Notes under the pieces: generated by a model
What the model was told of the DNA's origin: nothing
Seen by the model: only the letters and a program-made list of their open reading frames with translations
Databases searched by the model: none
NCBI RefSeq assembly: GCF_014200755.1
Contig: NZ_JACHCM010000003.1
Location: 124,001 to 188,000 of the forward strand
Origin: Rhodanobacter sp. ANJX3
GTDB lineage: Bacteria > Pseudomonadota > Gammaproteobacteria > Xanthomonadales > Rhodanobacteraceae
Length of the DNA stretch: 64,000 nt
Reading direction: 5' to 3'
Position numbers and translations under genes: made by a program
Shown: positions 4,413-26,763 of the stretch, piece after piece
Position numbering within the stretch: the stretch's first letter is position 1
Layout of the letters: each line of letters starts with the position of its first letter

Positions 4413-4419
4413 GCAAAGT

Positions 4420-4432
4420 TACGAATCTCGTA
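4420..4432. promoter_or_regulatory. Second TACGA-N3-TCGTA site, probable XRE operator 2
   Basis: TACGA ATC TCGTA repeats the core of the upstream palindrome with a different spacer. The two centres (4392 and 4426) are 34 bp apart, near three helical turns, allowing cooperative binding on one DNA face. It lies 27 bases before the XRE start codon, so occupancy should affect xre transcription. Confidence 0.65.
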
Positions 4433-4458
4433 GGGTACCTATCCAACAAGGTTGTAAC

Positions 4459-5599: not shown

Positions 5600-5730
5600 C
5601 GTCAGGTCGCCCTCCCGCTCCGGCAACGGCTCGGGAGGGCGACAAGCAATGGCGATGAGCCGCTCGACATCGGCGCCTATCCGCCTGAGCTACACTCCAG
5701 CGCCTTTCCTGTTCGTGCTGCGGCGTCGCC

Positions 5731-10020: not shown

Positions 10021-10299
10021 CGCTTTCGTGCTCCCCTTGACCCCTGACGCAGTGTGCACACAACACGATGCTGTCGCATAGACCAGAGGTCATGCTGAAG
10101 AAAGGCTCATAACCGTGCCGATCACCGACCGATGCTGCCGCGCGCTGAAACCGCCGCGTATACGTCTTGTCTGATGGGGGATAAAATGGGAATTCGATCT
10201 CTCCTATTCATGGAAAGTCGGGACGATAAGGCGACCAGGCGCCGAGTGTCTCACTGCAGCCAGCCGCATCTCCCGTCCGGCCAACCACAAGGGTTCATC

Positions 10300-12395: not shown

Positions 12396-12605
12396 AGCAA
12401 ACCGTAATAGTTTGAACGACGTTCACGGCGCGCATGCAGCTGCACGCGATCTGACCGCTACGCCCGCTTGAGGTATCGCGCGAGTCGTCCAGCCCTCACA
12501 ATATGTCGATACCATCGCGGCGACTTCGGCCATGACTATCCCGGATATCTCAATGCACCAACGTCGGGCTCGTGCCGTCAGCTCACGTATCGAAAACCGC
12601 CGCGC

Positions 12606-14060
12606 ATGCTGAATCGCGCAACCCTCGTTCGTCTGCTCTGCAGCGCCATGGTCGGCGCGGTGGCAGGCTGTGCCTCGCCCGTGCCCAAGCTGGCCGCGCC
12701 GCTGCCCGCGCAGTGGCAACATGCGCTGGCGGCCGATCCGGCCAAACCCAGCGATCTGCAGGGCTGGTGGCATGCGTTCAACGATCCGCAGCTCGACGCT
12801 CTGGTCGATCGCGCGTTGGCCAACAATCTCGACGTCGCCCAGGCGGTCGAGCGCATGCTCGCCACCCGCGCCATTCATACCCGCGCGAACTACAAATACC
12901 TGCCCACCCTGAGCGGGCGCACCGACGACGCGATCGACCCAAACGCCCATGCTTCCTACTTCGTCGCCGGGTTCGACGCCAACTGGGAATTCGGGTTATT
13001 CGGTCGGCGCGAAGGCACCCGGCGCGAGGTGCAGGGCGCGATGGACGCCAGCGTGGCCGATCTGCGCAGCGCCCAGGTGTCGCTGGTGGCCGAGGTGGTG
13101 CGCGACTGGATCGCGCTGCGCACCGCCCAGCAGCAGGAACAGCTGCTTACGCAGATCAGCCAGGCGCACCAGCAGCATTGGGACCTTCTGAAGATACGCG
13201 AGCGACTGCAGCTGGTCGCGCCGAGCGAAGTGGATCAGGCGCAGGCGCTGGCGGCGCAGGCCGACGCGGCGCTGGCCGCTCCGCGGCAGGCGATCAACGA
13301 GAGCGCGCAGCAGCTGGCCGTACTGGTCGGACAGAATCACCCCGATTCCGCGTGGCTGACGCCCGGCAGACAGCCGGATATCGGTTCGTTCGAGCTGAGC
13401 GCTGCGCCGGTCGATCTGCTTCGCACGCGTCCGGAGATTGCCCGAGCCGAAGCCGACGTGCTGCGCAGCGCCGGCGAACTCGCGCTGACGCACGCCGACG
13501 AGTATCCGCAGGTAAGCCTCGGCGCGTCGCTGGTCTGGGCCGTGAATATCGCCGACGACGACAACCATACGAAAACCCCGGGCGGCATTTTTTCGCTCGG
13601 TCCCATTCTGAATATCCCGCTGTTCGACTGGGGCGTTCGCGTTGCTGCAACGCACGCCAAGAACCACCAGCTGCAGGCCAGCGTGCAGGCGTATCGGCAA
13701 TCGGTGCTGCAAGGCATCGCCGAGGTGGAAACCGCACTCGGCTCATTGCAACAGCAGCAGCAGCGCGAGGTCCAGAGCGCGATTGCGTGGCAGTCCCTGC
13801 AGCGCGTCGATCGCGCCGTGCAAAGCCGCGTCCGGCTGAAGCTGACCAGCCCGCTGGACCGCATCCAAAGCCAGATCGCCGTGGATCAGGCCAATGCCGA
13901 ACTCATCGACGCCCGCGCGCAGCACAGCCTGGCCTACGTCGCCTTGTTCAAGGCGCTGGGCGGCGCCCCGCTGCCAACCGCGGCGCAGCTGGGATCGGCC
14001 GCGCCGAAAACCACGAGCTCGGCCGGCGCTGCGACCACTGATAAAGAGACGCTACGCTGA
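12606..14060 (+). CDS. TolC/NodT-like outer-membrane efflux lipoprotein
   Basis: 484 residues from ATG 12606. Lipoprotein signal with cleavage before C22 (GAVAGC), followed by two OEP repeats: a DPQLDALVDRALANNLDVAQA-type start and a second near RTRPEIARAEADVLRSAGELAL, as in OprM/NodT proteins. Long Q/A-rich coiled-coil helices match the periplasmic tunnel. The stop overlaps the ATG of the FtsX-like permease by one base, placing the outer-membrane channel in the same operon as its inner-membrane ABC partner, an arrangement that argues for a dedicated tripartite exporter. Confidence 0.9.
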   Translation: MLNRATLVRLLCSAMVGAVAGCASPVPKLAAPLPAQWQHALAADPAKPSDLQGWWHAFNDPQLDALVDRALANNLDVAQAVERMLATRAIHTRANYKYLPTLSGRTDDAIDPNAHASYFVAGFDANWEFGLFGRREGTRREVQGAMDASVADLRSAQVSLVAEVVRDWIALRTAQQQEQLLTQISQAHQQHWDLLKIRERLQLVAPSEVDQAQALAAQADAALAAPRQAINESAQQLAVLVGQNHPDSAWLTPGRQPDIGSFELSAAPVDLLRTRPEIARAEADVLRSAGELALTHADEYPQVSLGASLVWAVNIADDDNHTKTPGGIFSLGPILNIPLFDWGVRVAATHAKNHQLQASVQAYRQSVLQGIAEVETALGSLQQQQQREVQSAIAWQSLQRVDRAVQSRVRLKLTSPLDRIQSQIAVDQANAELIDARAQHSLAYVALFKALGGAPLPTAAQLGSAAPKTTSSAGAATTDKETLR

Positions 14061-15190: not shown

Positions 15191-15194
15191 GGCG

Positions 15195-15959
15195 ATGAAT
15201 CCCGCGATCCAAGCTCCCGCTGCCGCGCCCCATAAACTACCGACGGTTGCACTGCAGGCCGAGAACGTCAGCAAGGCGTTCGTTTCCGGCAAGCAGCGCA
15301 CGCAGGTGCTCGACGGCCTGTCGCTGCATATCAATGCCGCCGAACTCACGCTGATTTCCGGGCCGTCCGGCTGCGGCAAGAGCACCCTGCTGGCGGTGCT
15401 CAGCGGCCTGCAAAAACTCGACGGCGGCCGCGTGCTGGCCCTTGGCAGCGAGCTGGGTCAGCTCGATATGCGCGCGCTGGAGCACTTTCGCCTGCAGCAC
15501 ACCGGCTTCGTGTTTCAGGGCTTCAATCTGTTCCCGGCGCTGAACGCGTTCGAGCAGGTCGAGCTGCCGCTCAATCACATGGGCATGTCGCGCGACGAAG
15601 CCCGGCAGCGCGCGCGCGCGTCGCTGGAAGAAGTCGGCCTCTCGCACCGGATGAAGCTACGCCCCTCCGAACTGTCCGGCGGCGAAAAGCAGCGCGTGGC
15701 CATCGCGCGTGCGCTGGCGAAAGAGCCCGAGCTGCTGTTCGCCGATGAGCCGACCAGCGCGCTGGATGCCGCCAACGGGCAGATGATCATCGACATACTG
15801 CATCGCATCGCCCGCACGCACGGCACCACCGTGCTGTGCGTCAGCCACGATCCCCGTCTCGTCGTCCACGCCGATCGCGTGCTGGCGATGGAAGATGGCC
15901 GCATTCTCAGCGATCAGCGCAACCAAGCGCCGGTCAGCGCCAGCAAGGGAACCCCCTGA
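15195..15959 (+). CDS. ABC transporter ATPase, LolD/DevA/MacB-NBD type
   Basis: 254 residues. Walker A GPSGCGKST near residue 56, Q-loop VFQGFNLFPALN, signature LSGGEKQR, Walker B LLFADEPTSALD, H-loop in CVSHDPR. The LNAFEQVELPL segment following the Q-loop is characteristic of the LolD/MacB subfamily that pairs with FtsX-type permeases. It partners the permease encoded just upstream and overlaps the adaptor gene downstream (TGATG). Confidence 0.94.
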   Translation: MNPAIQAPAAAPHKLPTVALQAENVSKAFVSGKQRTQVLDGLSLHINAAELTLISGPSGCGKSTLLAVLSGLQKLDGGRVLALGSELGQLDMRALEHFRLQHTGFVFQGFNLFPALNAFEQVELPLNHMGMSRDEARQRARASLEEVGLSHRMKLRPSELSGGEKQRVAIARALAKEPELLFADEPTSALDAANGQMIIDILHRIARTHGTTVLCVSHDPRLVVHADRVLAMEDGRILSDQRNQAPVSASKGTP

Positions 15960-16969
15960 TGAAACCGCTCGCTCTCCACTCGCCGTCGTTCGTACGCGTT
16001 GCGACGCCGGCGCGTTCGGCCCGATTCGCACAACTCGCCCGAGCGGGCGGTCTGGCGATATGTGCGTCGGTGCTGCTCGGTGGCTGCTCGAAATCCGCCG
16101 ACGCGCCAGCGCCGACGGCAGCCGCACCCACCTCGGCGTATGCCGCCGTGGCACGCGGCAAGGTGGATATCGAAGGCGGCCTGCTGAGCTTGTCGATGCC
16201 GCGCGAAGGCACGCTGGCCAAGGTCGCCGTGCACGAAGGCGATCAGGTCAGGCAAGGCCAGCTGCTGGCTTCGCTCGATACCGAGCCTTCCCTGCTGGCG
16301 ATCGACGCGGCCCAAGCCCAGCTCGAACAGGCGCAGGCGCAACTGAAGCTGCTGGCCGTCAAACAGGCGGCGGCCAAACAGCGCGCGCAACGTTTGACCG
16401 CTGCCGTTGCGGCGGGCGCCGGGGACGGTCAGAGCGCCGACGACGCGCGCGAAGCGGCAGCGCAGATCGACGCCGAGCAGGAAACCGACCGCGCCTCGGT
16501 GAGCATGGCCAACCAGAAGCTGGCCGAAGCGCGCTACGAACTGAAACAACACAGCCTTGTCGCGCCGTTCGATGCCGACGTCATCGAAGTATCCGCGCAG
16601 CCGGGCGCCACCGTCTCGCCGTCCTCCGGCCCGCTATTTACGCTGCTGCCGCAAAAGCCGCGCATCGTACGCGCGGAACTCAACGAAAGCTTTGTCGGCG
16701 TGATCCAGCCCGGCATGCGTGCCGAGGTTTCCGCCAACAACGATCCGTCCGACAATCACTGGAGCGCGCACGTGCTGCGTATCGGCGGCGTGTATGGACC
16801 GGCCACGCTGGAAAACGATCCGCAGGTACGCGCCAATTCGCGCACCGTGGAATGCGTGCTTGCATTCGACCAGCCGGACTCGGAGCAGACCCGGAATCTG
16901 CGCATCGGCCAGCGCGTGCTCGTGCGATTTGCGTCAGCCAACCCCAAGCAACCCGCGGCGAAAGACTGA
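15959..16969 (+). CDS. Periplasmic adaptor lipoprotein (HlyD/MFP family)
   Basis: 336 residues from ATG 15959, overlapping the ATPase stop by one base. Lipobox with cleavage before C43 (LLGGC). A biotinyl-lipoyl-like half motif (GTLAKVAVHEGDQVRQGQLLASLD), a long alpha-hairpin rich in A/Q/K between about 105 and 195, then the second lipoyl half (LVAPFDADVIEVSAQPGATV) and a beta-barrel domain. This is the membrane-fusion protein that would bridge the FtsX-like permease to the OprM-like channel. With its three upstream genes it completes a four-gene exporter controlled, by position, by the two-component system. Confidence 0.91.
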   Translation: MKPLALHSPSFVRVATPARSARFAQLARAGGLAICASVLLGGCSKSADAPAPTAAAPTSAYAAVARGKVDIEGGLLSLSMPREGTLAKVAVHEGDQVRQGQLLASLDTEPSLLAIDAAQAQLEQAQAQLKLLAVKQAAAKQRAQRLTAAVAAGAGDGQSADDAREAAAQIDAEQETDRASVSMANQKLAEARYELKQHSLVAPFDADVIEVSAQPGATVSPSSGPLFTLLPQKPRIVRAELNESFVGVIQPGMRAEVSANNDPSDNHWSAHVLRIGGVYGPATLENDPQVRANSRTVECVLAFDQPDSEQTRNLRIGQRVLVRFASANPKQPAAKD

Positions 16970-17049
16970 GGAAACTGCCGCTTGCCACACTGTACGATCA
17001 CGAATCACGGCACTGAACCGCCGCAGTTCATCAGGTACGGGGCCATCGC

Positions 17050-17886
17050 GTGATCCAGCAAACCGATTTTTTCTTCGAAGGTGGGCGCAGCGGCGTACTG
17101 CTGATCCATGGGCTGACCGGCACGCCGATGGAAATGAAGCTGCTGGGCAAGGGCCTCAACCGCGCCGGCTTCACCGTGCACGGCATGCAGCTGGCCGGCC
17201 ACTGCGGCAACGTCGACGACCTGCTCGCGACAGGCTGGCACGATTGGTACGCCAGCGTGGAGAAAGCCGCCGACGAGCTGCGCAGCAAGGTCGATCACCT
17301 CTTCGTCGGTGGCCTCTCGATGGGCGCTCTGCTGGCACTGAAACTGGCCGCCGAACGGCCCGAACAGGTCTGCGGCGTAGGCGTCTATGGCGCTACGTTC
17401 CGCTACGACGGCTGGAGCATTCCGGCGGTGGCGCGCCTGTCCTTTCTGCTGCCGCTGTTCAAGAAACTCGGCATCGGCCGCAACCGCAGCTTTATGGAAG
17501 CGCCGCCCTACGGTATCCGCGACGAGCGCCTGCGCGCGCAGGTCAGCACCGCCATGCTCGGCGGCGACAGCGCCGCGGCCGGCCTGCCCGGCAACCCCTG
17601 GTATTCGCTGGCCGAGATGTACGAACTCGCCGCGGACGTACGCCAGCGCCTCTCGCAGGTCACCGCCCCCTGCCTGGTCGCACATGCCAGCGAAGACGAC
17701 GTGGCCAGCGTGAAAAACGCCGAGCTGGTGATGCGCGAGGTCAGCGCGCCGGTCGAGCTGCTGCTGCTCAAGGACAGCTACCACATGATCACTATCGACA
17801 AAGAGCGCCGCACGCTGATCGAGCGCTCGGCCGCCTTCTTCGAAGCCATCGCTGCCGGCGAAACCGCGCCCTGCGTCGCTGCCTGA
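17050..17886 (+). CDS. Alpha/beta hydrolase (monoacylglycerol-lipase/carboxylesterase-like)
   Basis: 278 residues from a GTG at 17050. Oxyanion-loop motif LIHGLTGTP (residues 18-26), nucleophile elbow GLSMG with S90, acid in HASEDDVAS and catalytic His in DSYHMITID: a complete Ser-Asp-His triad. The family resembles Est30-type carboxylesterases and monoacylglycerol lipases that hydrolyse medium-chain acyl esters or thioesters. It is the first gene of a plus-strand run with two SMR-type transporter genes and a DegT-like enzyme, and could act as an acyl-chain releasing or editing thioesterase in that pathway (inference). Confidence 0.88.
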   Translation: MIQQTDFFFEGGRSGVLLIHGLTGTPMEMKLLGKGLNRAGFTVHGMQLAGHCGNVDDLLATGWHDWYASVEKAADELRSKVDHLFVGGLSMGALLALKLAAERPEQVCGVGVYGATFRYDGWSIPAVARLSFLLPLFKKLGIGRNRSFMEAPPYGIRDERLRAQVSTAMLGGDSAAAGLPGNPWYSLAEMYELAADVRQRLSQVTAPCLVAHASEDDVASVKNAELVMREVSAPVELLLLKDSYHMITIDKERRTLIERSAAFFEAIAAGETAPCVAA

Positions 17887-17899
17887 TCCTTTCGCCCGC

Positions 17900-18274
17900 A
17901 TGCCTGCCACGCCCATTACCCCGCTGATCGCCACGCTGTGGCTACTCAACGTCATCATCGACACCGTCGGCCAGCTGGCTTTCAAGGCCGCCGCCGGCGA
18001 TCAGGCAGCCGGCGACGGGTTGGCGCGCTGGATCTACATGGCCCGGCGGCCGTGGATCTGGATCGGCATCGGCAGCTACGTGATCGAGTTTCTGATCTGG
18101 ATCGCCTTTCTGTCGCTGCTGCCGCTGTCCGAAGCGATCCTGCTCGGCTCGATCAATATCGTCGCGATCATGGTCGCCGGCCACTTTCTGTTCGGCGAAA
18201 AGCTCACGCGCTTGCGCCTGAGCGGCATTTTGCTGGTGACGCTGGGCGTCGCCATCGTCGGAGCGGTGGGATGA
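17900..18274 (+). CDS. Four-helix SMR/EamA-half transporter, subunit 1
   Basis: 124 residues with four hydrophobic helices (approximately 8-28, 48-66, 71-89, 97-122), the size of an EmrE/ArnE-type half transporter rather than a ten-helix DMT protein. It begins 13 bases after the hydrolase stop and its own stop overlaps the start of a second protein of the same kind (ATGA), so the two are probably made in equal amounts and form a heterodimer, as ArnE/ArnF do when flipping an undecaprenyl-linked sugar. The substrate here is unknown; an amphipathic product of the neighbouring enzymes is a reasonable guess. Confidence 0.8.
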   Translation: MPATPITPLIATLWLLNVIIDTVGQLAFKAAAGDQAAGDGLARWIYMARRPWIWIGIGSYVIEFLIWIAFLSLLPLSEAILLGSINIVAIMVAGHFLFGEKLTRLRLSGILLVTLGVAIVGAVG

Positions 18275-18690
18275 GGCGCGGCACGTTTTATCTGCTCGGT
18301 TTTCTGCTGCTGATGCTGTTCGACAGCATCGGCGCGATCAGCTTCAAGTACGCGGGCGATCATGCGCTGCCGGTCGAGGCCAGCATCGCCTGGCTGCTGC
18401 GCATCTTCACTCACCCGTGGGTGTACGGCGCCGTGATCGGCTACATCGGCGCGTTTTTCACCTGGATGACCCTGCTCAAGCACGCGCCCATCGGCCCGGC
18501 ATTCGCCGCCTCGCACCTGGAAGTGGTGTCGGTGATGCTGCTGTCGGTGTGGCTGTTCGACGAACACCTCACGCTGGGACGCGTGCTGGGTGCGCTGGCG
18601 ATCCTTGCCGGCATCGTCTGCCTTGGCTTCGCTGAAAGCAATGAACATGTCCCCGAGCCCGAAGAAGTCGACTCGGCCACGCGACGCTGA
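18271..18690 (+). CDS. Four-helix SMR/EamA-half transporter, subunit 2
   Basis: 139 residues from ATG 18271, overlapping the first subunit by four bases. Four helices (approximately 6-26, 47-67, 75-92, 100-120) followed by a short acidic C-terminal tail (EPEEVDSATRR). Shares topology and the helix-4 pattern (LGALAILAGIVCLG) with subunit 1, but has diverged, as in heterodimeric SMR pairs. The DegT-like gene starts 22 bases downstream, so the transporter pair sits in the middle of the biosynthetic operon. Confidence 0.8.
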   Translation: MRRGTFYLLGFLLLMLFDSIGAISFKYAGDHALPVEASIAWLLRIFTHPWVYGAVIGYIGAFFTWMTLLKHAPIGPAFAASHLEVVSVMLLSVWLFDEHLTLGRVLGALAILAGIVCLGFAESNEHVPEPEEVDSATRR

Positions 18691-18712
18691 CGTCCCGCGC
18701 TACCCTGCACGC

Positions 18713-19924
18713 ATGCTGCCGACTCGCCCCCAGGAATTGCCGCCCACCGCCGGGCTACCGTTGACGCTGGCCGATCTGCGACCGGGACGCGCAACGCTCG
18801 CCGCCGATATAGCCGTCCAGATCGGCGTGCCGGCGCTGCAGGTGGAATGTTCCGGCACGGCCTGCCTGCTGCTGACGCTGATCGCACTGCGCGAGCTGCA
18901 GCCGCAGCGGCGGCGGGTGGTGGTGCCGGCGTTCACCTGCCCGCTCGTCGCCATCGCGGTGCATCAGGCCGGGCTGGAACTGCAGCTGTGCGACGTACGC
19001 GCCAGCCATTTCGATCTGGATCCGACCGCGCTGCGCGCCGTGTGCGACGAACAGACGCTGGCGATCGTGCCCACGCATCTGGGCGGCCGTATCGCCGATG
19101 TCGACGATGCCGTCGCCGTCGCGCGCCACGTCGGCGCCTATGTGATCGAGGATGCCGCGCAGACGCTCGGCGGCCGAGTCGATGGCACGAGCATCGGTCT
19201 CACCGGCGACGTCGGTTTCTTCAGTCTCGCCGCCGGCAAGGGCTTGTCGATCTATGAGGGCGGCCTGCTGCTGACGCGCGATCCATCGCTGCGCGAGCAG
19301 CTCAAACAGACGTCCAAACGCGTCGTGCCCCGTCGTCTCGGCTGGGAGCTGCGCCGCACCGTCGAGCTGCTGGGTTATGCCGCGCTGTATCGTCCCAGCG
19401 GCCTGCGCATGGCTTACGGCGAGCCGCTGCGCCGCGCGCTGCGACGTGGCGATCCCGTGGGTGCAGTCGGCGATGATTTCCCGCTGACGGTTCCGCTGCA
19501 CAAGGTCGGCCGCTGGCGCCAAGCCATCGGTGCGCACGCGGCCGGGAGGCTGCCGGCATTTATCGATCAGCTCACGGCACAGGCCAAACGACGCCTGCCG
19601 CGGCTGCGCCAGATCGGCGGTATCGACGTGCTCGATGATGCGCCTGGCGATAGTGGCACCTGGCCGTTCCTGCTGCTGCTGCTGCCGGACCAGACCCGAC
19701 GCGACGCGGCGATGTTCCAGCTGTGGCAGGCCGGGCTTGGCGTCAGCCGCCTGTATATCGACGCCCTGCCGGATTACGCCTATCTCGCCGATATTGTGCC
19801 GCGCCAGGATGTGCCGAATGCGCGAGACTTTGCCGCACGCAGCTTAAGCATCAGCAACAGCCTGTGGGTGACCGACGACGACTTCGAAACGATCTGCCGC
19901 ACGCTGGAAGGCATCGTCGGCTGA
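18713..19924 (+). CDS. DegT/DnrJ/EryC1/StrS-like PLP-dependent enzyme
   Basis: 403 residues from ATG 18713; the in-frame extension to 18590 overlaps the transporter gene and is unlikely. Fold-type I aminotransferase signatures: CSGTACLLLTLIAL (PLP phosphate region), PAFTCPLVAIAVHQAG, IEDAAQTLGG (Asp contacting the pyridine N) and the probable PLP lysine in SLAAGKGLSIYEGG. The C-terminal part is shorter and more divergent than sugar aminotransferases. Members transfer an amino group onto keto-sugars or other ketones, or catalyse related PLP chemistry. Its operon position with export subunits and, across a convergent gap, an arginase-like and an acyltransferase gene suggests it builds an amine into a small molecule. 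Confidence 0.83.
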   Translation: MLPTRPQELPPTAGLPLTLADLRPGRATLAADIAVQIGVPALQVECSGTACLLLTLIALRELQPQRRRVVVPAFTCPLVAIAVHQAGLELQLCDVRASHFDLDPTALRAVCDEQTLAIVPTHLGGRIADVDDAVAVARHVGAYVIEDAAQTLGGRVDGTSIGLTGDVGFFSLAAGKGLSIYEGGLLLTRDPSLREQLKQTSKRVVPRRLGWELRRTVELLGYAALYRPSGLRMAYGEPLRRALRRGDPVGAVGDDFPLTVPLHKVGRWRQAIGAHAAGRLPAFIDQLTAQAKRRLPRLRQIGGIDVLDDAPGDSGTWPFLLLLLPDQTRRDAAMFQLWQAGLGVSRLYIDALPDYAYLADIVPRQDVPNARDFAARSLSISNSLWVTDDDFETICRTLEGIVG

Positions 19925-19933
19925 GCATGATTC

Positions 19934-20815
19934 TCAGTTCGAATGCGCACCGATCCCGTCGAGCAAACGCAGGTTCAACGCATGCTGCTGCGCCTGCCAT
20001 TCGGCGAGCATGGCCGGATCGATTTCCGGCTGATCGTCCATCGCGGAAAGGCGGCGTTTCCACCAGGTTTCGTAGCGATAGTGCGATACCTCGCCGTTGA
20101 TGTCGCTGCCGACCAGGCCGTTGCGCAAGCTATCGATGATAGCCAGCGCGTGATCGACCTGCAGCTTGCCCTGGTCCCAGTTGGTATGCGCCACGTTGGG
20201 CGCGAAGGCGTCCTTGTCGATCGACAGATAGCTGGGCAGCGTCTGCGTGCGCTGTGATTCGACGAAGGCGTCGACCATCGCTTCGGGCGTATCGAAGCCG
20301 CGGAACGCATCGGCGATACCCAGCCTGCGCGCCCAGCCGGTGTCCACGCCGATGTTCCAATAGGTGAGTTTGCCCTTCTTCAGCGGCGTGAGGTAATTCT
20401 CCCACGCGTGCCCGGCGCCGATGTCCGCCGAGGTGATGCCGAGCACATGCACATGGCTCACGGATGGCAGCATCGCCACGCGGCGCACCCACGAACCGCA
20501 GTGCACGCCGAACGGAAAGCGCATGTTGTCCGGATGGTTGTCCAGCACCACGACCTGCATGGGCCGCTCCGTCTGCAGTCGTTCGATCAGCGGCCAGCTC
20601 AGGTGATGGAAATCGCCGCTGCCCATGAACACCGTGCCGTACTGCTGCGGCAGCAGCTCGTCGAGCATGCTGCGAAAACGCCGCATGGTGGCCAGCGAAC
20701 AGCCGAAGCGAATCGACTCCTGCCAGTGCTCCAGCGGCAGCACCAGCCGCAGCGGCAGCGGCCCGACCGAACGGTCGATATCGAGCACCACGGGACGTTG
20801 GTCAAGACTGTGCAT
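19934..20815 (-). CDS. Arginase/ureohydrolase-fold metalloprotein (UPF0489-like)
   Basis: 293 residues. Three metal-ligand motifs of the ureohydrolase/histone-deacetylase fold can be recognised: GSGDFHH (residues 65-71), the DxHxD-like DNHPDN (92-97), and SIDKD (197-201, matching the DxD of arginases). Length is normal for the fold. It could hydrolyse a guanidino, amidino or acyl-amide bond; true arginases also carry further conserved residues that I do not see, so arginine is not a safe substrate. The gene overlaps its upstream neighbour (FemAB/GNAT type) by 14 bases and converges on the DegT-like gene with only 9 bases between stops. Confidence 0.75.
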   Translation of the reverse strand: MHSLDQRPVVLDIDRSVGPLPLRLVLPLEHWQESIRFGCSLATMRRFRSMLDELLPQQYGTVFMGSGDFHHLSWPLIERLQTERPMQVVVLDNHPDNMRFPFGVHCGSWVRRVAMLPSVSHVHVLGITSADIGAGHAWENYLTPLKKGKLTYWNIGVDTGWARRLGIADAFRGFDTPEAMVDAFVESQRTQTLPSYLSIDKDAFAPNVAHTNWDQGKLQVDHALAIIDSLRNGLVGSDINGEVSHYRYETWWKRRLSAMDDQPEIDPAMLAEWQAQQHALNLRLLDGIGAHSN

Positions 20816-21878
20816 CGGCGGCCTCCGCGGTAGCCTGCCATTGACGATCGCTTTCGAAATGGCTGCCGAGCCGGCGCAGCAGCGCGCGCAGTAGCGGATT
20901 GCGCGCGTACACCGCGTGGCGCGTGAATGTCATGCGCGCACCGAGAAAGGATTTCACCTGAGGGTCGGTCCAACCGGCCACGTAATGGGTGAGACCGCGT
21001 TGCCGCGCGTAGTCGAGATTGTGCATCCAGCTCACGAAATACAGGTTGTGCTCGCGCGCCTGCGGATAGGCAAAGCCGATGTACTTGTCGATCAACTTGC
21101 CGCCCTCTTCGTAGCAGAGGTTCCAGCCGATCATCCGACCCGCGTGGCGATAGACGAACACTACACCGTCGCTGCGTGCATCGCGCAACAGGGCACGAAA
21201 AAAATCCTCGCTGAGGCGATCGAAATGGATCTCACTTTGCGCGTAGACATTGTCGAACAGGGTGTAGAACTCGCGCAGCGTGGTCTCGTCGTCGAAGCGC
21301 GCATCGCCCGTGCGTACGATCTCGATATCCAGGTCGGCGCGCGAGCGCAGCTTGCGGCGGATGTTTTTGCGGCGCCCGGACGACAAACGCGACAGGTACT
21401 CGTCCCCGCTGGCGAAATCGATCGGCACCCAGGCGAGCGCCTGGCCTTCCAGCAACACGTAGCCTTCCGCTTCGCAGGCGCTGGCGAAGGCGCTGGCCTG
21501 GGCGTTGTCCGCCTCGCTGAGCAGCGGCGAATCCTGCGCGATGTCCTTCACGATAAGCAGCTTGCAATCGCGCGCGTAAGCAGCCTTGAGACCCCGCGCC
21601 AGCGCGATCGGCGACACCGTGCGCGGCAGCGGCGCGTATTCCGACACGGTGGTACCGGCAAAACGGGTGCGCCAGCGCAGTGCCCTGCCCCACCAGCGAT
21701 AGAGCGGCAAAGCGGCCACGCGCCTGCGCAGTTCCTCGTCCGCCGTGGTCAGCAGATCGAACGGCGCCACGAAGCACGGCATGCCCTGCGGCGAGGTCTC
21801 CACGACAAACCCGATCGGCGGGTGGTTCATGAAGTGCTTCAGCAGCGCGTCGGGTTCGAGTTGGGCGATGAAAGACAT
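20802..21878 (-). CDS. FemAB/GNAT-type acyl- or aminoacyltransferase
   Basis: 358 residues from ATG 21878 (a TTG at 21884 is the only further start). The C-terminal domain (about 165-340) has the GNAT/FemAB-like (Acetyltransf_6) layout: LSSGRRKNIRRKLRSR, then FYTLFDNVYAQSEIHF, VFVYRHAGRMIGWNLCYE and KYIGFAYPQAREHNLYF. Proteins of this type transfer acyl groups from CoA/ACP or aminoacyl groups from tRNA to amines. The N-terminal 160 residues form a second, degenerate domain, as in double-GNAT proteins. It is divergent from acp and the ketosynthase gene across an 82-base gap, making an acyl-ACP a plausible donor (inference). Confidence 0.78.
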   Translation of the reverse strand: MSFIAQLEPDALLKHFMNHPPIGFVVETSPQGMPCFVAPFDLLTTADEELRRRVAALPLYRWWGRALRWRTRFAGTTVSEYAPLPRTVSPIALARGLKAAYARDCKLLIVKDIAQDSPLLSEADNAQASAFASACEAEGYVLLEGQALAWVPIDFASGDEYLSRLSSGRRKNIRRKLRSRADLDIEIVRTGDARFDDETTLREFYTLFDNVYAQSEIHFDRLSEDFFRALLRDARSDGVVFVYRHAGRMIGWNLCYEEGGKLIDKYIGFAYPQAREHNLYFVSWMHNLDYARQRGLTHYVAGWTDPQVKSFLGARMTFTRHAVYARNPLLRALLRRLGSHFESDRQWQATAEAADAQS

Positions 21879-21960
21879 ATGCAAGCGATAATGCCTAAAC
21901 TAAAGAGACCAAAATGTTGAATCAGCATTGTTGCCGTTTGCCACCAGGAAGCCACGCGCC

Positions 21961-22230
21961 ATGAACGAGTCGATCCAGCAGCAGGTGTTCGAGATCATTG
22001 CCAAGCAGGCCAAGATCGACGTGGCCGTCATCACGCCCGAATCGACCCTGAAGGATCTGGGTATCGAATCGCTGGATGCCATCGAGCTGATCTTCGATAT
22101 CGAAGAGCACTTCGACATCACCTTCCCCGACCAGCAGGGCGCCAACTTCGACAAGGACACGGCGCAGAGCCTGGTCGATGCTGTACAGACCGCGCTCGAC
22201 AGCAAAGCGGCCGGCGAAGGAAGCAAGTAA
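21961..22230 (+). CDS. Free-standing acyl carrier protein
   Basis: 89 residues from ATG 21961, preceded by an AGGAAG ribosome-binding site. The phosphopantetheine site is S37 in DLGIESLDAIEL; the flanking helix II is acidic (FDIEEHFDI), matching type II ACPs. It is not the housekeeping acpP, whose normal neighbours (fabD, fabG, fabF) are absent and whose motif is DSLDTVEL. The stop TAA overlaps the ketosynthase ATG (TAATG), so carrier and condensing enzyme are co-translated; dedicated acyl-chain building for a secondary product is the natural reading. Confidence 0.92.
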   Translation: MNESIQQQVFEIIAKQAKIDVAVITPESTLKDLGIESLDAIELIFDIEEHFDITFPDQQGANFDKDTAQSLVDAVQTALDSKAAGEGSK

Positions 22231-23462
22231 TGCCCAATGTGTCCACGCGTCGTGTCGTGATTACCGGCATGGGCGCCATCAGCGCGCTGGGCGTCGGCGC
22301 CGAGGCCTTGTGGCAAGGCTTGCGCGAAGGCCGCAGCGGCATCGCCCCGCTGCGCCATCAGGACGCGGCACGCGTACGCGTCAAGGTGGCCGCACAGGTG
22401 CCCGAAAGTTTCGATCCGGCGGTCGGTATCGACGAGCGCACCCTGACACAACTCGATCGCACCTCGGAATTCGCGCTGCACGCGGCCGACGAGGCCATCC
22501 AGCAATCCGGCCTGGATTTCAGCAACAGGGAAGTCGGGGCGCGTACCGCGGTAGTCGTCGGCACCGGCGTCGGCGGCGAAACCACCCAGGACGAACAGAG
22601 CCGGCGCCTCTACGCCGAAAATGCCACCCGCGTTCACCCGTTGAGCATCGTGCGCGTGATGACCAACGCGTCGGCCAGCCAGATCAGCATCAAATATGGC
22701 CTGCGCGGACCGACCTTTGCCGTGGCCAGCGCCTGCGCGTCGGCCAACCACGCGATCATCCAGGCGGCGCAGATGATTCGCTACGGCATGGCCGATACCG
22801 CCATCACCGGCGGCACGGAAGCATGCATCAGCTACGTCGTGCTGCGCGGATGGGAGGCCATGCGCGTACTGGCCGACGACACCTGCCGCCCCTTCAGCAT
22901 CAACCGACGCGGCCTGGTGATCGGCGAGGGCGCAGGCATCTTCGTGCTCGAATCGCTGGAGCACGCGCAGGCGCGCGGCGCGACGATTCTCGCCGAGCTG
23001 GCGGGCGGCGGCATGACGGCCGACGCCACCGACATCGTGATGCCCAGCGCCGACGGCGCTGCCGCCGCGATGGCACAGGCGCTCAACGAAGCCGGCCTGG
23101 CACCCGACGATATCGACTACATCAACGCCCACGGCACCGGCACTCAGGCCAACGACGCGACCGAGACCAGAGCCATTCGCCTCACCTTCGGCGCGCACGC
23201 CGACCGCCTCGCGGTATCGTCCACCAAGTCGATGCACGGCCATGCGCTCGGTGCCTCGGGCGCGCTGGAACTGGTCGCCGTGGTCAACGCGCTGCGCTAT
23301 GGCATCGTGCCGCCGACCGCCAATTTCGACCAGGCCGATCCGGCCTGCGACCTGGATATCGTGCCCAACGTGGCCCGTGAGATGCCGGTGTGGGCCGCGC
23401 TGAGCAACTCCTTCGCGTTCGGCGGACTCAACGCGGTGCTGGCGATCAAACGCGCGCCCTGA
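22230..23462 (+). CDS. FabF-like beta-ketoacyl-ACP synthase
   Basis: 410 residues. Complete Cys-His-His triad: C169 in ASACASANH, H301 in NAHGTGTQAND and H338 in KSMHGHALGASG. The thiolase fold is normal length and no chain-length-factor substitution is seen, so it should be catalytically active in decarboxylative Claisen condensation with malonyl-ACP. The usual KSMTGH is KSMHGH here. It is coupled to its own acp and lies next to the FemAB/GNAT-type and arginase-like genes. No ketoreductase or dehydratase is encoded nearby, so either one condensation is done or the housekeeping FAS enzymes supply the rest. Confidence 0.93.
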   Translation: MPNVSTRRVVITGMGAISALGVGAEALWQGLREGRSGIAPLRHQDAARVRVKVAAQVPESFDPAVGIDERTLTQLDRTSEFALHAADEAIQQSGLDFSNREVGARTAVVVGTGVGGETTQDEQSRRLYAENATRVHPLSIVRVMTNASASQISIKYGLRGPTFAVASACASANHAIIQAAQMIRYGMADTAITGGTEACISYVVLRGWEAMRVLADDTCRPFSINRRGLVIGEGAGIFVLESLEHAQARGATILAELAGGGMTADATDIVMPSADGAAAAMAQALNEAGLAPDDIDYINAHGTGTQANDATETRAIRLTFGAHADRLAVSSTKSMHGHALGASGALELVAVVNALRYGIVPPTANFDQADPACDLDIVPNVAREMPVWAALSNSFAFGGLNAVLAIKRAP

Positions 23463-23485
23463 AGCGATTTTCCGATCCGACAAAC

Positions 23486-23519
23486 AAAAGAACCCGGCGA
23501 GCGATCGCCGGGTTCTTTT
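23486..23519. terminator. Bidirectional intrinsic terminator between convergent genes
   Basis: Perfect 15-bp stem AAAAGAACCCGGCGA (23486-23500), loop GCGA, TCGCCGGGTTCTTTT (23505-23519), with A-tract and T-tract on either side so that it works on both strands. It separates the ketosynthase gene (plus) from the class III aminotransferase gene (minus). Confidence 0.92.
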
Positions 23520-23545
23520 TGCGTGGAAACCACGCGCCTCGGACA

Positions 23546-24949
23546 TCAGCCCTTCTTGGCTTTCGTCAGCAGCTGATCCAGCAAGGAAATCGCCAGATCG
23601 ATCTCTTCGTGGGTAATGTTGAGCGACGGCGCGAACGTGATCACGTTCTTGTACCAGCCGCCCACGTCCAGCACGAGGCCGATCTTCTTGCCGTTGTGCT
23701 CCAGATCGCCGGCCAGGCCGATATCGACCATCTTGTCGAGCAGCGCCTTGTTCGGCGTGAAGCCGTCGTCCGTGCAGATTTCCGCACGCAGGGCGAGACC
23801 CAGGCCGTCGACGTCGCCGATTTCCTTGTGACGCTTCTGCAGGTCGCGCAGGCCGTCGAGGAAATGCTTGCCCTTGGCCGGCACGGTGGTTTCGTAGTCC
23901 AGCTCGTAGCCCATCTTGATCACTTCCAGACCCAGCGAGGTACCCAGCGGGTTGGAGTTGAAGGTCGAGTGGGTCGAGCCCGGCGGAAACACGGTCGGGT
24001 TGATCAGCTCTTCGCGCGCCCACAGACCCGACAGCGGATTGAGGCCGTTGGTCAGCGCCTTGCCGAACACCACGATATCCGGCGTCACGCCGAAGTTCTC
24101 GATCGACCACAGCTTGCCGGTACGCCAGAAACCCATCTGGATTTCATCGGACACCATCAGGATGCCGTACTTGTCGAGCACTTTTTTCAAGCCCTGGAAG
24201 AAGCCCGGCGGCGGGATCACGTAACCGCCGGTGCCCTGGATCGGCTCGACGTAGAACGCGGCGTATTCGCACTGGTTCGTCTTCGGATCCCACACGCCGT
24301 TGTATTCGGTCTCGAACAGGCGCTCGAACTGGCGCACGCAGCTGTCGGAATACTCTTCCGGCGTCATGCCCTTCGGACGACGGAACGGATACGGAAACGG
24401 CAGGAACATCGCGCGCTCGCCGAAATGGCCGAAGCGACGGCGGTAGCGGTAGCTCGAGGTGATCGACGAAGCGCCCAGCGTACGGCCGTGGTAGCCGCCT
24501 TCGAACGCGAACATCAGGCTCTTGCCGTTGCAGGCGTTGCGCACGATCTTCAGCGAATCCTCGATCGCCTGCGCGCCGCCCACATTGAAATGCACGCGAC
24601 CGTCCAGGCCGAATTTTTTCTTGGCGTCGATCGCGATGGTCTTGGCCAGCTCGATGCGGGTCTGATGCAGGTACTGGCTGGCCACCTGCGGCAGCAGGTC
24701 GATCTGGTTCTTCAGCACATCGTTGAGGCGCTTGTTGGCGTAGCCGAAGTTGACCGCCGAGTACCACATCTGCAGGTCGAGGAACGGCGTGCCCTCGGTA
24801 TCGAACATGTAGCTGCCTTCGCAGCCGCGGAAGATCTTGGGCGGATCAACATAGTGCACGGTATCGCCGAACGAGCTGTACTTGGCCTCGTCGGCCAGCA
24901 GCTGCGCGTCGTCGATCACGACCTGGGCGTTCTTGTCGAAAGCGTTCAT
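23546..24949 (-). CDS. Class III PLP-dependent aminotransferase
   Basis: 467 residues. Class III signatures: GCEGSYMFDTEGTPFLDLQMWYSA (N-terminal substrate region), FEGGYHGRTLGA, the D(E) pair in GILMVSDEIQMGF contacting PLP, and the Schiff-base lysine in VVFGKALTNGLNPL. Such enzymes move amino groups between omega-amino donors (4-aminobutyrate, ornithine, beta-alanine) and 2-oxoglutarate or pyruvate. The amino donor here cannot be read. The HAD-IB phosphatase gene lies 84 bases upstream on the same strand and is probably co-transcribed. A phosphatase plus aminotransferase is a familiar end of serine-like amino-acid pathways, which may feed the adjacent acyl/amine cluster (inference). Confidence 0.88.
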   Translation of the reverse strand: MNAFDKNAQVVIDDAQLLADEAKYSSFGDTVHYVDPPKIFRGCEGSYMFDTEGTPFLDLQMWYSAVNFGYANKRLNDVLKNQIDLLPQVASQYLHQTRIELAKTIAIDAKKKFGLDGRVHFNVGGAQAIEDSLKIVRNACNGKSLMFAFEGGYHGRTLGASSITSSYRYRRRFGHFGERAMFLPFPYPFRRPKGMTPEEYSDSCVRQFERLFETEYNGVWDPKTNQCEYAAFYVEPIQGTGGYVIPPPGFFQGLKKVLDKYGILMVSDEIQMGFWRTGKLWSIENFGVTPDIVVFGKALTNGLNPLSGLWAREELINPTVFPPGSTHSTFNSNPLGTSLGLEVIKMGYELDYETTVPAKGKHFLDGLRDLQKRHKEIGDVDGLGLALRAEICTDDGFTPNKALLDKMVDIGLAGDLEHNGKKIGLVLDVGGWYKNVITFAPSLNITHEEIDLAISLLDQLLTKAKKG

Positions 24950-25033
24950 GGGCGGGGAGTCCGTGATAATTCAAGGGAAATATTTAGAAGGTGTATCGAT
25001 GCCGAAGTTCAGCCGAATCCTGCGCTGGCTGGA

Positions 25034-25744
25034 TCAGTAAGGCACGCTGAGCGCGGGCTGCGGCGCGTGATCTTCCAGCAGGCTGCCGTCGAGCAGGCGC
25101 GGCAGCAGATCCAGCGCATCCTCGAAACCGGTGATCGGCGCGTACGGGATGCCCGCGGCGCGGCAATGCTCGATCAGGCGATGTTTGGCGAACACGAAAT
25201 CCACCCGATCCGCCGCGCAGAAATCCGACGCGCCGTCACCGATCAGCAAGGTCTTGGTGCCCGGACCTGACGCGCGGGCCTGGGCCACACAGGCGCACTT
25301 GCAGGTGCCGCTGCGGCAGCCGTCCGCCTGAAACGGCGAGGTCAGCTGCCACTGCTTCGGCGGCGGCGCCGGCGCCAGATGATTGGCGGCCAGCGGCAGA
25401 TCGTCCAGGCCATAGCGGCCGAGAATCTTGTGAATGGCGTAATCCAGGCCGTCGCTGACCACGCGGATCGGCACGTTGAGCGCGCGCGCCTTGGCCACAA
25501 AGCCCGGAAACGCATGGTCGATCCACAGGCCGGCCAGGTGCGTGTCCAGCTCGTCGCGGGTCATCTTCAGCAGATCGACCTGGCCGGACATGCACTCGCG
25601 CGAACCGATGCGACCGGCGCGCCAGTCCTGCTCAAGCACTTCCCAGCCCGGCTTGCCGAAACGGTCCAGCAGGGAGTCGATGACGTCCTCGACGGAAATC
25701 GTGCCGTCAAAGTCGCATAGGATGGTCCAGTTGGACAAGGGCAT
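25034..25744 (-). CDS. HAD-IB family phosphatase, MtnX/SerB-like
   Basis: 236 residues from ATG 25744 (MPLSNWTILCDFDG); an ATG at 25768 would add eight residues. HAD motif I CDFDGTIS, motif II Ser in VVSDGLD, motif IV GDGASDFCAA, with the helical cap inserted between I and II. A cysteine-rich insert, GCRSGTCKCAC, precedes motif III; it is seen in MtnX-like proteins and may bind metal. Expected to dephosphorylate a small phosphomonoester such as a phosphoserine-like or ketose phosphate compound. First gene of the minus-strand pair with the aminotransferase. Confidence 0.83.
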   Translation of the reverse strand: MPLSNWTILCDFDGTISVEDVIDSLLDRFGKPGWEVLEQDWRAGRIGSRECMSGQVDLLKMTRDELDTHLAGLWIDHAFPGFVAKARALNVPIRVVSDGLDYAIHKILGRYGLDDLPLAANHLAPAPPPKQWQLTSPFQADGCRSGTCKCACVAQARASGPGTKTLLIGDGASDFCAADRVDFVFAKHRLIEHCRAAGIPYAPITGFEDALDLLPRLLDGSLLEDHAPQPALSVPY

Positions 25745-25824: not shown

Positions 25825-26763
25825 GTGTCTAGGCTGCCTGGCGGCATGCATCTGCGTTCACGGTCAAATCGCCTATGCTTGGCTATCCCTTGCCCTGTAT
25901 GCATTCCCGACGTGTCTCTATTCGCTTTGCCCGAACCGCTCCTGCAACATTCATCCTTTCGTCGCATTCAGCTTTCCGCGTGGTTCCTGTCCAGTTGCTT
26001 GCTGGCAGGGCCGACCTGGTCGTTCGCCGGCGCTGCCGATACGGGCGATGTCACGCCGGACCCGAACGCCGTCACCCTGGCCCTGGGCGCCGGGGTGGAG
26101 CGCCTGCCGAGCTTTCCCGGCGCGAAATCGCATCGGAATGAGCCGATTCCCTACGTCGATTTCGAGTGGCCGGACCACGTCAGCCTGTCCACGCTCGACG
26201 GCCTGCAGGTCGATTTGATCGGCGGCAGCGTGCTGCACGGCGGTGTATTCGGCGATTATCAGTGGGGTCGCGATACCGATGATCTGAGCCCGCGGCTGCG
26301 CGAAAAGCTCAACCCGCTGTCGCCGCGCCTGACCGCCGGCGGCTATCTGGAGTGGCAGCTGACCAAGCAGATCGACGTCGGCACCAACCTCACTCATGAC
26401 ATCAACGGCGCGGGCGCCTATCTCAACGTCTATGCCGAGTGGGATCTGCCGAAGGTGTGGCTGATCGAGCATTCGCTGCAGGTTCGCTGGCAGGCAATGA
26501 ATGGCCCGGCGATGAGCCGCTTTTTCGGCATCACGCCAACCCAGTCCAGTCTGCTGAACGTGCCGAGCTGGCGTCCCGATACAGGAAGTCAGCTGGCCGA
26601 TCTGGAGTACGACGTCTTCGTGCCCACCAGCCAGCACACCGGCATAGCGCTGGCTCTGACCTACGGTCGCCTGCTCGGCAACGCCGCCGACAGTCCCCTG
26701 GTGACGCGGTTCGGCTCAGCGACGCAGATTTCCGAATCGCTGGCGTTCGTCTATCACTGGTAA
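25825..26763 (+). CDS. MipA/OmpV-family outer-membrane protein
   Basis: Up to 312 residues; the true start is uncertain because the signal peptide (about RRIQLSAWFLSSCLLAGPTWSFA) begins some 45 residues in, and a GTG at 25912 or another internal codon may be used. After cleavage, alternating beta-strand patterns (VTLALGAGVERLPSFPGA, PIPYVDFEWPDHVSL, LTAGGYLEWQLTKQIDVG) and a C-terminal FVYHW aromatic end indicate a small beta-barrel. MipA proteins interact with MltA/PBP1B; OmpV-like members respond to osmolarity. Divergent from the HAD phosphatase gene. Confidence 0.78.
   Translation: MSRLPGGMHLRSRSNRLCLAIPCPVCIPDVSLFALPEPLLQHSSFRRIQLSAWFLSSCLLAGPTWSFAGAADTGDVTPDPNAVTLALGAGVERLPSFPGAKSHRNEPIPYVDFEWPDHVSLSTLDGLQVDLIGGSVLHGGVFGDYQWGRDTDDLSPRLREKLNPLSPRLTAGGYLEWQLTKQIDVGTNLTHDINGAGAYLNVYAEWDLPKVWLIEHSLQVRWQAMNGPAMSRFFGITPTQSSLLNVPSWRPDTGSQLADLEYDVFVPTSQHTGIALALTYGRLLGNAADSPLVTRFGSATQISESLAFVYHW

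What the first reader, a model, noticed from the sequence alone, without database searches (positions are those of the whole stretch)
17050..25744. Unassigned acyl/amino biosynthetic cluster with its own heterodimeric exporter
Within 8.7 kb lie an alpha/beta hydrolase, two coupled four-helix SMR subunits, a DegT-type PLP enzyme, an arginase-fold protein, a FemAB/GNAT-type acyltransferase, a free-standing ACP, one FabF-like ketosynthase, a class III aminotransferase and an HAD-IB phosphatase. The enzymes suggest: the phosphatase and aminotransferase make an amino precursor, the ketosynthase/ACP supply an acyl chain, the FemAB-like enzyme joins acyl and amine, and the SMR pair flips or exports the amphipathic product. 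I know no described pathway with this set (not aryl-polyene, ornithine lipid, sphingolipid or homoserine-lactone synthesis). This is my main candidate for an undescribed system.
Basis: partly seen in the sequence, partly recalled or inferred. Interest (0 to 1): 0.72.

Follow-up and report, generated by a model that had tools for sequence, protein, structure and literature searches.

The report
Undescribed conserved envelope amine-lipid gene cluster
A soil bacterium carries a regulated set of about 16 genes that seems to build and export an unknown fatty, amine-bearing envelope molecule; much of the same set recurs together in distantly related bacteria and on plasmids, so it is probably a real pathway, though its product is unknown and I found no description of it.

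Summary
All ten proposed genes are intact frames, and catalytic residues are conserved. The set is not a chance neighbourhood. It recurs, with reshuffled order, in Rhodanobacter, Dyella, Frateuria, Luteibacter and Xanthomonas and on rhizobial, Bartonella and Roseomonas plasmids. Among 72,556 plasmid records the ureohydrolase, the FemAB-like transferase and the HAD phosphatase each hit 47, and the three sets are identical (thresholds differ).

The unit is larger than reported: a PmrA/QseB-like two-component system and a MacB/DevBCA-like exporter with NodT-type channel lie upstream (10300-17016). HAD, class III aminotransferase and alpha/beta hydrolase are the most widely shared genes, usually with the SMR pair. 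FemAB with ureohydrolase (and DegT in many lineages) forms a second, co-varying module. ACP/ketosynthase, desaturase and CFA synthase look accessory but point to an acyl chain.

Best reading: a regulated envelope pathway making, flipping and exporting an amine-bearing acylated product. Product and substrates are inferred, not shown. My ten searches of an open-licence paper library found no description.

The parts
10300..10989 (+). OmpR-type response regulator (PmrA/QseB/TctD-like)
   Evidence: PF00072, PF00486; best NCBIfam PmrA 211.6 bits, under its cut-off of 330; conserved neighbour
10986..12395 (+). Sensor histidine kinase with 2CSK_N sensor domain (QseC/PmrB-like)
   Evidence: PF08521, PF00512, PF02518; conserved neighbour
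12468..14060 (+). NodT-type outer-membrane channel
   Evidence: TIGR01845 210.9 bits, over cut-off 210.05; PF02321
14060..15190 (+). ABC exporter permease, MacB/DevC-like
   Evidence: PF12704, PF02687; devC 79.1 bits, under cut-off 290.35
15195..15959 (+). ABC exporter ATPase, DevA/LolD/MacB-like
   Evidence: PF00005; heterocyst_DevA 220.7 bits, under cut-off 295.8
15895..17016 (+). Probable periplasmic adaptor (start uncertain); its positional counterpart in X. sacchari L181 is annotated HlyD family adaptor
   Evidence: no Pfam match; position and X. sacchari annotation
17050..17886 (+). Alpha/beta hydrolase, monoacylglycerol-lipase/Est30-like; S90-D-H triad, Cys at 90 in six rhizobial relatives
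   Evidence: PF12146; PDB thermostable monoacylglycerol lipase 8.6e-34; residues
17900..18274 (+). SMR/EamA-type subunit 1
   Evidence: PF00892 just below, ArnF/ArnE models far below cut-off; D/E at position 21 in 90 of 90 rows
18271..18690 (+). SMR/EamA-type subunit 2
   Evidence: PF00892 above cut-off; EmrE in PDB 2e-4; homologous to subunit 1, hhalign 99.8%
18713..19924 (+). DegT-type PLP aminotransferase, catalytic Lys176 kept
   Evidence: PF01041; K176 in 92 of 92 rows
19934..20815 (-). Ureohydrolase (arginase/agmatinase fold), all six metal ligands kept
20802..21878 (-). FemAB-like tandem-GNAT transferase
21961..22230 (+). Acyl carrier protein, attachment Ser37 kept
   Evidence: PF00550; S37 in 96 of 96 rows
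22230..23462 (+). FabF-like ketosynthase with intact Cys-His-His
   Evidence: PF00109/PF02801; C169 H301 H338 in 90 of 90 rows; two other genomic KS matches, 43% and 33% identical
23546..24949 (-). Class III PLP aminotransferase, the best conserved gene of the set
   Evidence: PF00202; 69% identical to the Agrobacterium plasmid copy; K297 in 103 of 103 rows
25034..25744 (-). HAD-IB (MtnX-like) phosphatase
   Evidence: TIGR01489 above cut-off; D11 D13 D170 in 104 of 104 rows
25825..26763 (+). MipA/OmpV-family outer-membrane protein; frequent neighbour, membership less certain
   Evidence: PF06629 4.1e-24; 30 of 80 named loci; MipA/OmpV annotated beside six of eight rhizobial loci read (not 82, 115)

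Best explanation
This is one regulated pathway that makes an amine-bearing, acylated (lipid-like) molecule and moves it across the envelope. SHOWN: the gene set, its conservation as a unit in Gamma- and Alphaproteobacteria, the folds of FemAB and ureohydrolase models, and conserved catalytic residues. INFERRED: the class III aminotransferase and HAD phosphatase act in series (a SerC/SerB-like logic) on a phosphorylated carbonyl compound to give an amino-alcohol head group. Dedicated ACP/ketosynthase, or in some rhizobia a desaturase and CFA synthase acting on chains, shape the acyl part. The alpha/beta hydrolase (Ser, or Cys in rhizobia) transfers or trims an acyl group. The paired SMR-like subunits flip the cationic amphiphile. 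The NodT/ABC/adaptor exporter may carry it to the outer membrane. FemAB plus ureohydrolase (with DegT in many lineages) is a second module that adds an amide-linked group and removes an amidino group as urea. A PmrAB/QseBC-like two-component system probably turns it on under envelope stress. Likelihood: one functional unit about 0.95; product lipid-like and envelope-directed about 0.55; the detailed order of steps about 0.2.
For: Plasmids: ureohydrolase (E<=1e-5), FemAB (1e-5) and HAD (1e-15) each hit 47 of 72,556 records, and the three accession sets are identical; the aminotransferase (1e-100) hits 34, all inside the 47; the hydrolase (1e-25) hits 70, and all 47 are among the 60 listed. Genomes of the phylum: ureohydrolase in 16 of 398, aminotransferase in 25, both in 16, hypergeometric p 1.5e-22, relatedness not corrected; of the nine genomes with aminotransferase only, eight have HAD and hydrolase matches beside it. 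Family: FemAB (E<=1e-100) and DegT (1e-40) both in 89 of 147, FemAB only in 1, DegT only in 4. Shuffled but linked loci in Rhodanobacter, Dyella, Frateuria, Luteibacter, Xanthomonas, Agrobacterium, Rhizobium, Phyllobacterium and Roseomonas; in Bartonella the set is split over two loci of one plasmid. Lipid context: desaturase in five and CFA synthase in four of eight rhizobial loci read, EptA and DgkA beside one; desaturase beside KS in L161. Exporter and two-component system linked in both classes. Folds. Residues.
Against: No substrate or product is known; the lipid nature rests on neighbours and on ACP/KS, which are missing from the eight rhizobial loci read. The AT-HAD pair with exporter and regulator stands apart from the FemAB module in the Dyella-like g14 and g19 loci read and in g18, so two pathways sharing a regulon are possible. 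SMR matches are lacking beside HAD-AT-hydrolase in L234, L235, L237, L239 and L240, and L241 shows the aminotransferase alone. Genome G136 of the window's own genus had no FemAB, AT, DegT, hydrolase or ureohydrolase match, so the pathway is dispensable. Roseomonas uses a different class III aminotransferase (26% identical over 203 residues), Aureimonas one like it. The exporter is missing from many loci (its ATPase at 40% identity or more in 51 of 103 loci of at least 17 kb) and might be an efflux pump unrelated to the product. Six SMR2 rows (Asn) break the acidic position.
Confidence: 0.5

Rival explanations
1. MprF-like rival: the FemAB-like enzyme transfers an amino acid (for instance arginine) from aminoacyl-tRNA onto a lipid or amino-alcohol acceptor, the ureohydrolase turns arginyl into ornithyl, and the product makes the envelope more cationic.
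Confidence: 0.2
2. Secreted small-molecule rival: the product is a diffusible amphiphilic natural product or signal, exported by the SMR pair and the tripartite pump, and not a membrane lipid.
For: A dedicated ACP/KS pair and a tripartite ABC exporter would suit a secreted metabolite; carriage on predicted conjugative plasmids (17 of 47 records); a distant Nostoc locus (FemAB 24%, aminotransferase 29% identical) with DevBCA exporter, NOS-type oxygenase and desaturase.
Against: Wide conservation in the family (90 of 147 genomes with a FemAB orthologue), few tailoring genes, and EptA/DgkA, CFA synthase, desaturase and MipA/OmpV neighbours point to the envelope.
Confidence: 0.2
3. LPS-sugar rival: DegT and the ArnEF-like SMR pair make and flip an amino sugar that modifies lipid A or O-chain, and the other genes are an accessory acylation system.
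For: DegT is nearest sugar-type aminotransferases; the SMR subunits match ArnE/ArnF models weakly; PmrA-like regulator; EptA neighbour in one Agrobacterium record.
Against: DegT is not annotated in the eight rhizobial loci read and not found in g18, while the SMR pair stays; ArnB, ArnE and ArnF models are far below cut-off; the annotated operons read show no glycosyltransferase or nucleotide-sugar gene inside them (Bartonella HY406 has rhamnose genes nearby).
Confidence: 0.08
4. Coincidental adjacency of unrelated housekeeping genes.
For: Gene order varies and the modules separate in some genera.
Against: Identical 47-record sets among 72,556 plasmids; 16 of 16 ureohydrolase genomes of the phylum sample have the aminotransferase; linkage in more than one bacterial class.
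Confidence: 0.02

Closest known systems
MprF / LpiA lysyl- or alanyl-phosphatidylglycerol synthases (with AcvB/AtvA-type hydrolases; the pairing is recalled)
   Different: No PF09924 match, no membrane flippase domain on the enzyme (separate SMR pair instead), extra aminotransferase, phosphatase and ureohydrolase; a strong PF09924 match lies elsewhere in the genome
Arn (4-amino-4-deoxy-L-arabinose) lipid A modification, ArnB/ArnE/ArnF
   Same: DegT aminotransferase and a two-gene SMR-type pair; PmrA-like regulator
   Different: NCBIfam ArnB/E/F scores far below cut-off (DegT 66.7 of 631; SMR1 22.2 of 92 for ArnE and 26.2 of 99 for ArnF; SMR2 28.8 of 99 for ArnF); acyl carrier, ketosynthase, ureohydrolase and class III aminotransferase added
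Ornithine-lipid synthesis (OlsBA/OlsF)
   Same: Would also link an acyl chain to an amine
   Different: The FemAB-like protein matches PF04339 and not PF13444; three PF13444 matches, one strong, lie elsewhere in the genome
DevBCA/MacAB-TolC type tripartite exporters
   Same: MacB/FtsX permease, DevA-like ATPase, probable adaptor and NodT channel in a row
   Different: Scores below the DevA/DevC cut-offs; cargo unknown; linked to a lipid/amine gene set
Serinol-type AT plus phosphatase logic (RtxA and SerC/SerB; recalled, no call)
   Same: Aminotransferase and HAD phosphatase encoded side by side
   Different: Substrate untested; the resemblance is one of logic, not of sequence

Membership tests
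MprF (aminoacyl-phosphatidylglycerol synthase) | LPG_synthase_C domain (PF09924) | tested here: not met
   Only PF04339 matched at E<=1e-3; a PF09924 protein lies elsewhere in the genome
MprF (aminoacyl-phosphatidylglycerol synthase) | Membrane flippase domain fused to the transferase | tested here: not met
   358 aa, no hydrophobic segment above threshold
MprF (aminoacyl-phosphatidylglycerol synthase) | Tandem-GNAT transferase fold | tested here: met
FemABX aminoacyl-tRNA transferases | FemAB Pfam family and aminoacyl-tRNA use | tested here: inconclusive
Ureohydrolase (arginase/agmatinase) superfamily | Fold and six binuclear-metal ligands | tested here: met
Ureohydrolase (arginase/agmatinase) superfamily | Hydrolysis of a guanidino/amidino group | not testable with these tools
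   No assay; His105 is Asn in 2 of 140 rows, and Glu242 is Asp in 26 of 140
Ornithine-lipid synthase OlsB/OlsF | Acetyltransf_5 (PF13444) N-acyltransferase | tested here: not met
   Not matched by the FemAB-like protein; present elsewhere in the genome
Arn system | ArnB, ArnE, ArnF at curated cut-offs | tested here: not met
   66.7, 22.2 and at most 28.8 bits against 631, 92 and 99
Arn system | ArnA, ArnC, ArnD, ArnT present | not tested
   No genome-wide search for these genes
Heterodimeric SMR transporter | Two overlapping, homologous small subunits | tested here: met
   4-bp overlap (sequence); hhalign probability 99.8; dimerisation itself not tested
Heterodimeric SMR transporter | Four transmembrane helices in each subunit | tested here: inconclusive
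   Four peaks in SMR2, three above threshold in SMR1
Exosortase/PEP-CTERM FemAB | NCBIfam match to a system-associated FemAB model | tested here: not met
   No NCBIfam family at E<=1e-3 for the FemAB-like protein
Class III aminotransferase | PF00202 above cut-off with PLP lysine | tested here: met
   238.3 bits against 30.5; K297 in 103 of 103 rows

The most novel reading that the evidence does not exclude
A previously undescribed, widespread class of amine-bearing envelope lipid, made without MprF, Ols or Arn enzymes. An aminotransferase/phosphatase pair makes an amino-alcohol head, a dedicated or modified acyl chain is attached, a FemAB-like transferase plus a ureohydrolase add and trim an arginine-derived cationic group, a paired SMR-type flippase and a tripartite pump place it in the outer membrane, and a PmrAB-like regulator controls it. 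It spreads between Alphaproteobacteria on plasmids.
Probability: 0.25. Interest if true: 0.85.

Novelty: new variant of a known kind. Interest (0 to 1): 0.68.

Why it matters
If right, many Lysobacterales (including Xanthomonas and, without ACP/KS nearby, a genus that I guess to be Stenotrophomonas) and a number of rhizobial plasmids encode an envelope molecule that current annotation does not predict. It might help explain unassigned aminolipids in polar-lipid profiles (recalled, not checked) and how these bacteria meet cationic peptides. It also ties a ureohydrolase and a FemAB-like transferase of unknown function to a defined, testable pathway, and gives a genome signature (HAD + class III AT + hydrolase, usually with an SMR pair, plus FemAB + ureohydrolase) by which to find it.

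Tried and rejected
Chance adjacency: rejected. Lysobacterales-only: my first class-wide search found 3 of 369 genomes and I read it so at first; this was a sampling effect, corrected. PmrA box (YTTAAK-N5-YTTAAK, consensus recalled): one two-mismatch hit at 12392 in the 6-30 kb part of the window, 4 in the whole window, so no evidence. Sigma-70 promoters: none found (shuffles 1.9); terminators at chance level (12 found, shuffles 10.4). Anti-phage defence: seven cluster proteins gave no PADLOC match. AT and HAD as strictly part of the FemAB pathway: weakened, since g18 keeps them without FemAB. KS/ACP as essential: rejected, since the eight rhizobial loci read lack them. Phylogenetic congruence: not tested. 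Literature: ten searches gave nothing on this set; I saw search listings and abstract beginnings only and opened no paper; one search was too broad (27,833 papers) to be a test; the library is open-licence PMC only. Motif roles (SMR acidic residue, ureohydrolase ligands, hydrolase triad, PLP lysines, SerC/SerB logic, EmrE comparison) are recalled. G handles bear no genus names; 'Rhodanobacter' for the window is inferred from named neighbours, and 'Stenotrophomonas' for g28 is a guess from genome size. Loci are cut at about 10 kb on each side, so absence of exporter or regulator from a locus is weak evidence. E-value limits for the plasmid and genome counts were my choice; with the Agrobacterium FemAB as query the plasmid count is 48, one Nostoc record more. 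The accession sets and genome sets were typed from the listings.

Full report
What is there. Pfam and NCBIfam support every assignment: alpha/beta hydrolase, two SMR/EamA-type subunits (the first one bit under the Pfam cut-off), DegT aminotransferase, arginase-fold protein, FemAB_like transferase, ACP, FabF-like ketosynthase, class III aminotransferase and a MtnX-like HAD-IB phosphatase. Tight spacing suggests translational coupling: SMR1/SMR2 overlap by 4 bp, FemAB/arginase by 14 bp, ACP/KS by 1 bp (sequence). The strand pattern is hydrolase-SMR1-SMR2-DegT (+), arginase with FemAB upstream of it (-), ACP-KS (+), and AT with HAD upstream of it (-).

The unit is larger. Directly upstream lie a response regulator (10300-10989), a histidine kinase with a 2CSK_N sensor domain (10986-12395), a NodT-type channel, a MacB/DevC-like permease, a DevA/LolD-like ATPase and a probable adaptor. 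In 103 loci of at least 17 kb, counting matches of 40% identity or more, the kinase is found in 44, the regulator in 37, the ATPase in 51, the permease in 50, NodT in 47 and the adaptor in 19, against 82-84 for hydrolase, SMR1, SMR2, DegT, ACP and KS, 71 for HAD and 67 for AT. These loci were fetched round FemAB or the arginase and are cut at about 10 kb. A MipA/OmpV gene (25825-26763, PF06629) is a frequent neighbour.

Conservation in the family and order. FemAB orthologues (E<=1e-100) occur in 90 of 147 genomes of the family; weaker FemAB-type hits raise the count to 126. The arginase-like protein is in 74 of 299 genomes of the order. Gene order differs: KS/ACP is inverted in Frateuria and some Luteibacter loci, the hydrolase stands beside FemAB in Dokdonella, and in genus g28 AT-HAD lies beside FemAB-arginase, followed by DegT-SMR-SMR-hydrolase, with no KS/ACP match in those four 20-kb loci. 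Other Luteibacter loci hold only arginase, FemAB, AT, HAD and MipA within reach (L116, L124, L125).

Beyond the order. A class-wide sample gave 3 of 369, but a phylum-wide search with a deeper alignment found the arginase-like protein in 16 of 398 genomes, including two further families of the class and another class. The aminotransferase (E<=1e-150) is in 25 of the same 398, and all 16 arginase genomes are among them. Of the nine others, eight have HAD and hydrolase matches beside AT; four of these eight also have KS, one (L233) has SMR pair, exporter and regulator, one (L236) a partial FemAB match on a 4-kb contig and one (L238) a weak FemAB match; L241 shows AT alone. SMR matches are missing in L234, L235, L237, L239 and L240, some of them short contigs. 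So HAD, AT and hydrolase are the most widely shared genes.

Plasmids gave the sharpest test. Searches with arginase (E<=1e-5), FemAB (1e-5) and HAD (1e-15) each returned 47 of 72,556 records, and the accession lists are identical. The aminotransferase (1e-100) gave 34, all within the 47; the other 13 are 11 Roseomonas, one Azospirillum and one Aureimonas, and in the Roseomonas and Aureimonas loci read a different class III aminotransferase is present. The hydrolase (1e-25) gave 70 records; 60 were listed, and all 47 are among them. Several records look like near-duplicates, so the 47 are not independent.

What the relatives show. Rhizobium acidisoli, R. ruizarguesonis, Phyllobacterium zundukense and Agrobacterium fabrum 2788 carry one operon: two-component system, HAD, AT, arginase, EamA, fatty acid desaturase, hydrolase, FemAB, EamA, CFA synthase, with MipA/OmpV beside it, and in the A. 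fabrum record EptA and DgkA next. Rhizobium sp. BG4 lacks the CFA synthase, A. larrymoorei both desaturase and CFA synthase. In A. salinitolerans and A. tumefaciens H13-3 both are lacking too, and the operon is followed by TolC, permease, ATPase and adaptor. Bartonella plasmids split the set into HAD-hydrolase-SMR-SMR-DegT with a two-component system, and AT-FemAB-arginase elsewhere on the plasmid; both halves were read for HY406, and for HY328 the second half rests on search positions. Genus g18 of the window's family is a natural reduction: AT-HAD with exporter (four of four loci read) and regulator (three of the four), and hydrolase-SMR-SMR-ACP-KS at another place (five of five loci read); all 11 g18 genomes have AT and hydrolase, none has a FemAB orthologue at E<=1e-100 or DegT at 1e-40, and the six listed have no ureohydrolase match.

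Are the proteins active? In alignments of distinct sequences from the fetched loci the key residues hold: AT Lys297 103 of 103, DegT Lys176 92 of 92, KS Cys-His-His 90 of 90, ACP Ser 96 of 96, arginase metal ligands 140 of 140, HAD Asp11/Asp13/Asp170 104 of 104. The hydrolase nucleophile is Ser in 116 and Cys in 6 of 122; the six are Agrobacterium, Rhizobium and Phyllobacterium. Both SMR subunits carry an acidic residue eight positions before an invariant Lys (SMR1 90 of 90; SMR2 97 of 103, Asn in six), a spacing that by recall equals that of EmrE Glu14-Lys22.

Mechanism. The most economical reading takes HAD, AT and hydrolase, with the SMR pair, as the core. An aminotransferase beside a phosphatase suggests an amino-alcohol from a phosphorylated carbonyl precursor; an acyl function is implied by ACP/KS, desaturase, CFA synthase and a lipase-like hydrolase; and the SMR pair and exporter imply movement of a cationic amphiphile. 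FemAB and arginase (with DegT in many lineages) form a second module. Each of these steps is inference. The regulator type, MipA/OmpV, EptA and DgkA suggest an envelope-stress role; this too is inference.

Known systems. The FemAB-like protein is not an MprF (no PF09924; a strong PF09924 match lies elsewhere in the genome), not OlsB (PF13444 matches lie elsewhere) and not the exosortase type. The DegT/SMR genes are not Arn members by curated cut-offs. No paper describing this set was found in ten searches of the open library, which lacks most subscription journals and holds no bioRxiv preprints.

Verdict. A real, conserved, regulated gene set that most likely forms one pathway; product unknown.

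Noticed in passing
window 1-6000: GC is about 0.52-0.55 against 0.58-0.67 in the rest of the window: a compositionally different stretch left of the cluster.
   Followed up: no
window 6860-10059 (- strand): An M1-peptidase-like protein (PF01433) and an unassigned 299-aa protein sit beside the response regulator and are matched near it in some other loci (e.g. L048, L193, L195).
   Followed up: partly
window 25034-25744: The HAD phosphatase carries cysteines kept in all 104 aligned rows (C51, C143, C148, C150, C176, C194), suggesting a bound metal or disulphides.
   Followed up: partly
L177, L179, L202, L203, L206, L207 (hydrolase gene): Six rhizobial copies of the alpha/beta hydrolase have Cys in place of the Ser nucleophile, which hints at acyl transfer and not lipolysis.
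   Followed up: partly
L205 (Nostoc sp. C052 plasmid pC052_E): A distant locus couples a FemAB-like protein (24%) and a class III aminotransferase (29%) with a nitric-oxide-synthase-type oxygenase, desaturase, glycosyltransferase, formyltransferase and DevBCA exporter.
   Followed up: no
L052 and L178: MBOAT O-acyltransferases lie near the FemAB/arginase genes in a g17 genome and in a Bartonella plasmid, the latter with an AlgX-like SGNH protein, a possible O-acylation step.
   Followed up: no
window 23486-23520: A perfect 10-bp G+C-rich inverted repeat followed by a T run between the converging KS and AT genes looks like a shared terminator by eye, though the consensus scan did not list it.
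   Followed up: no
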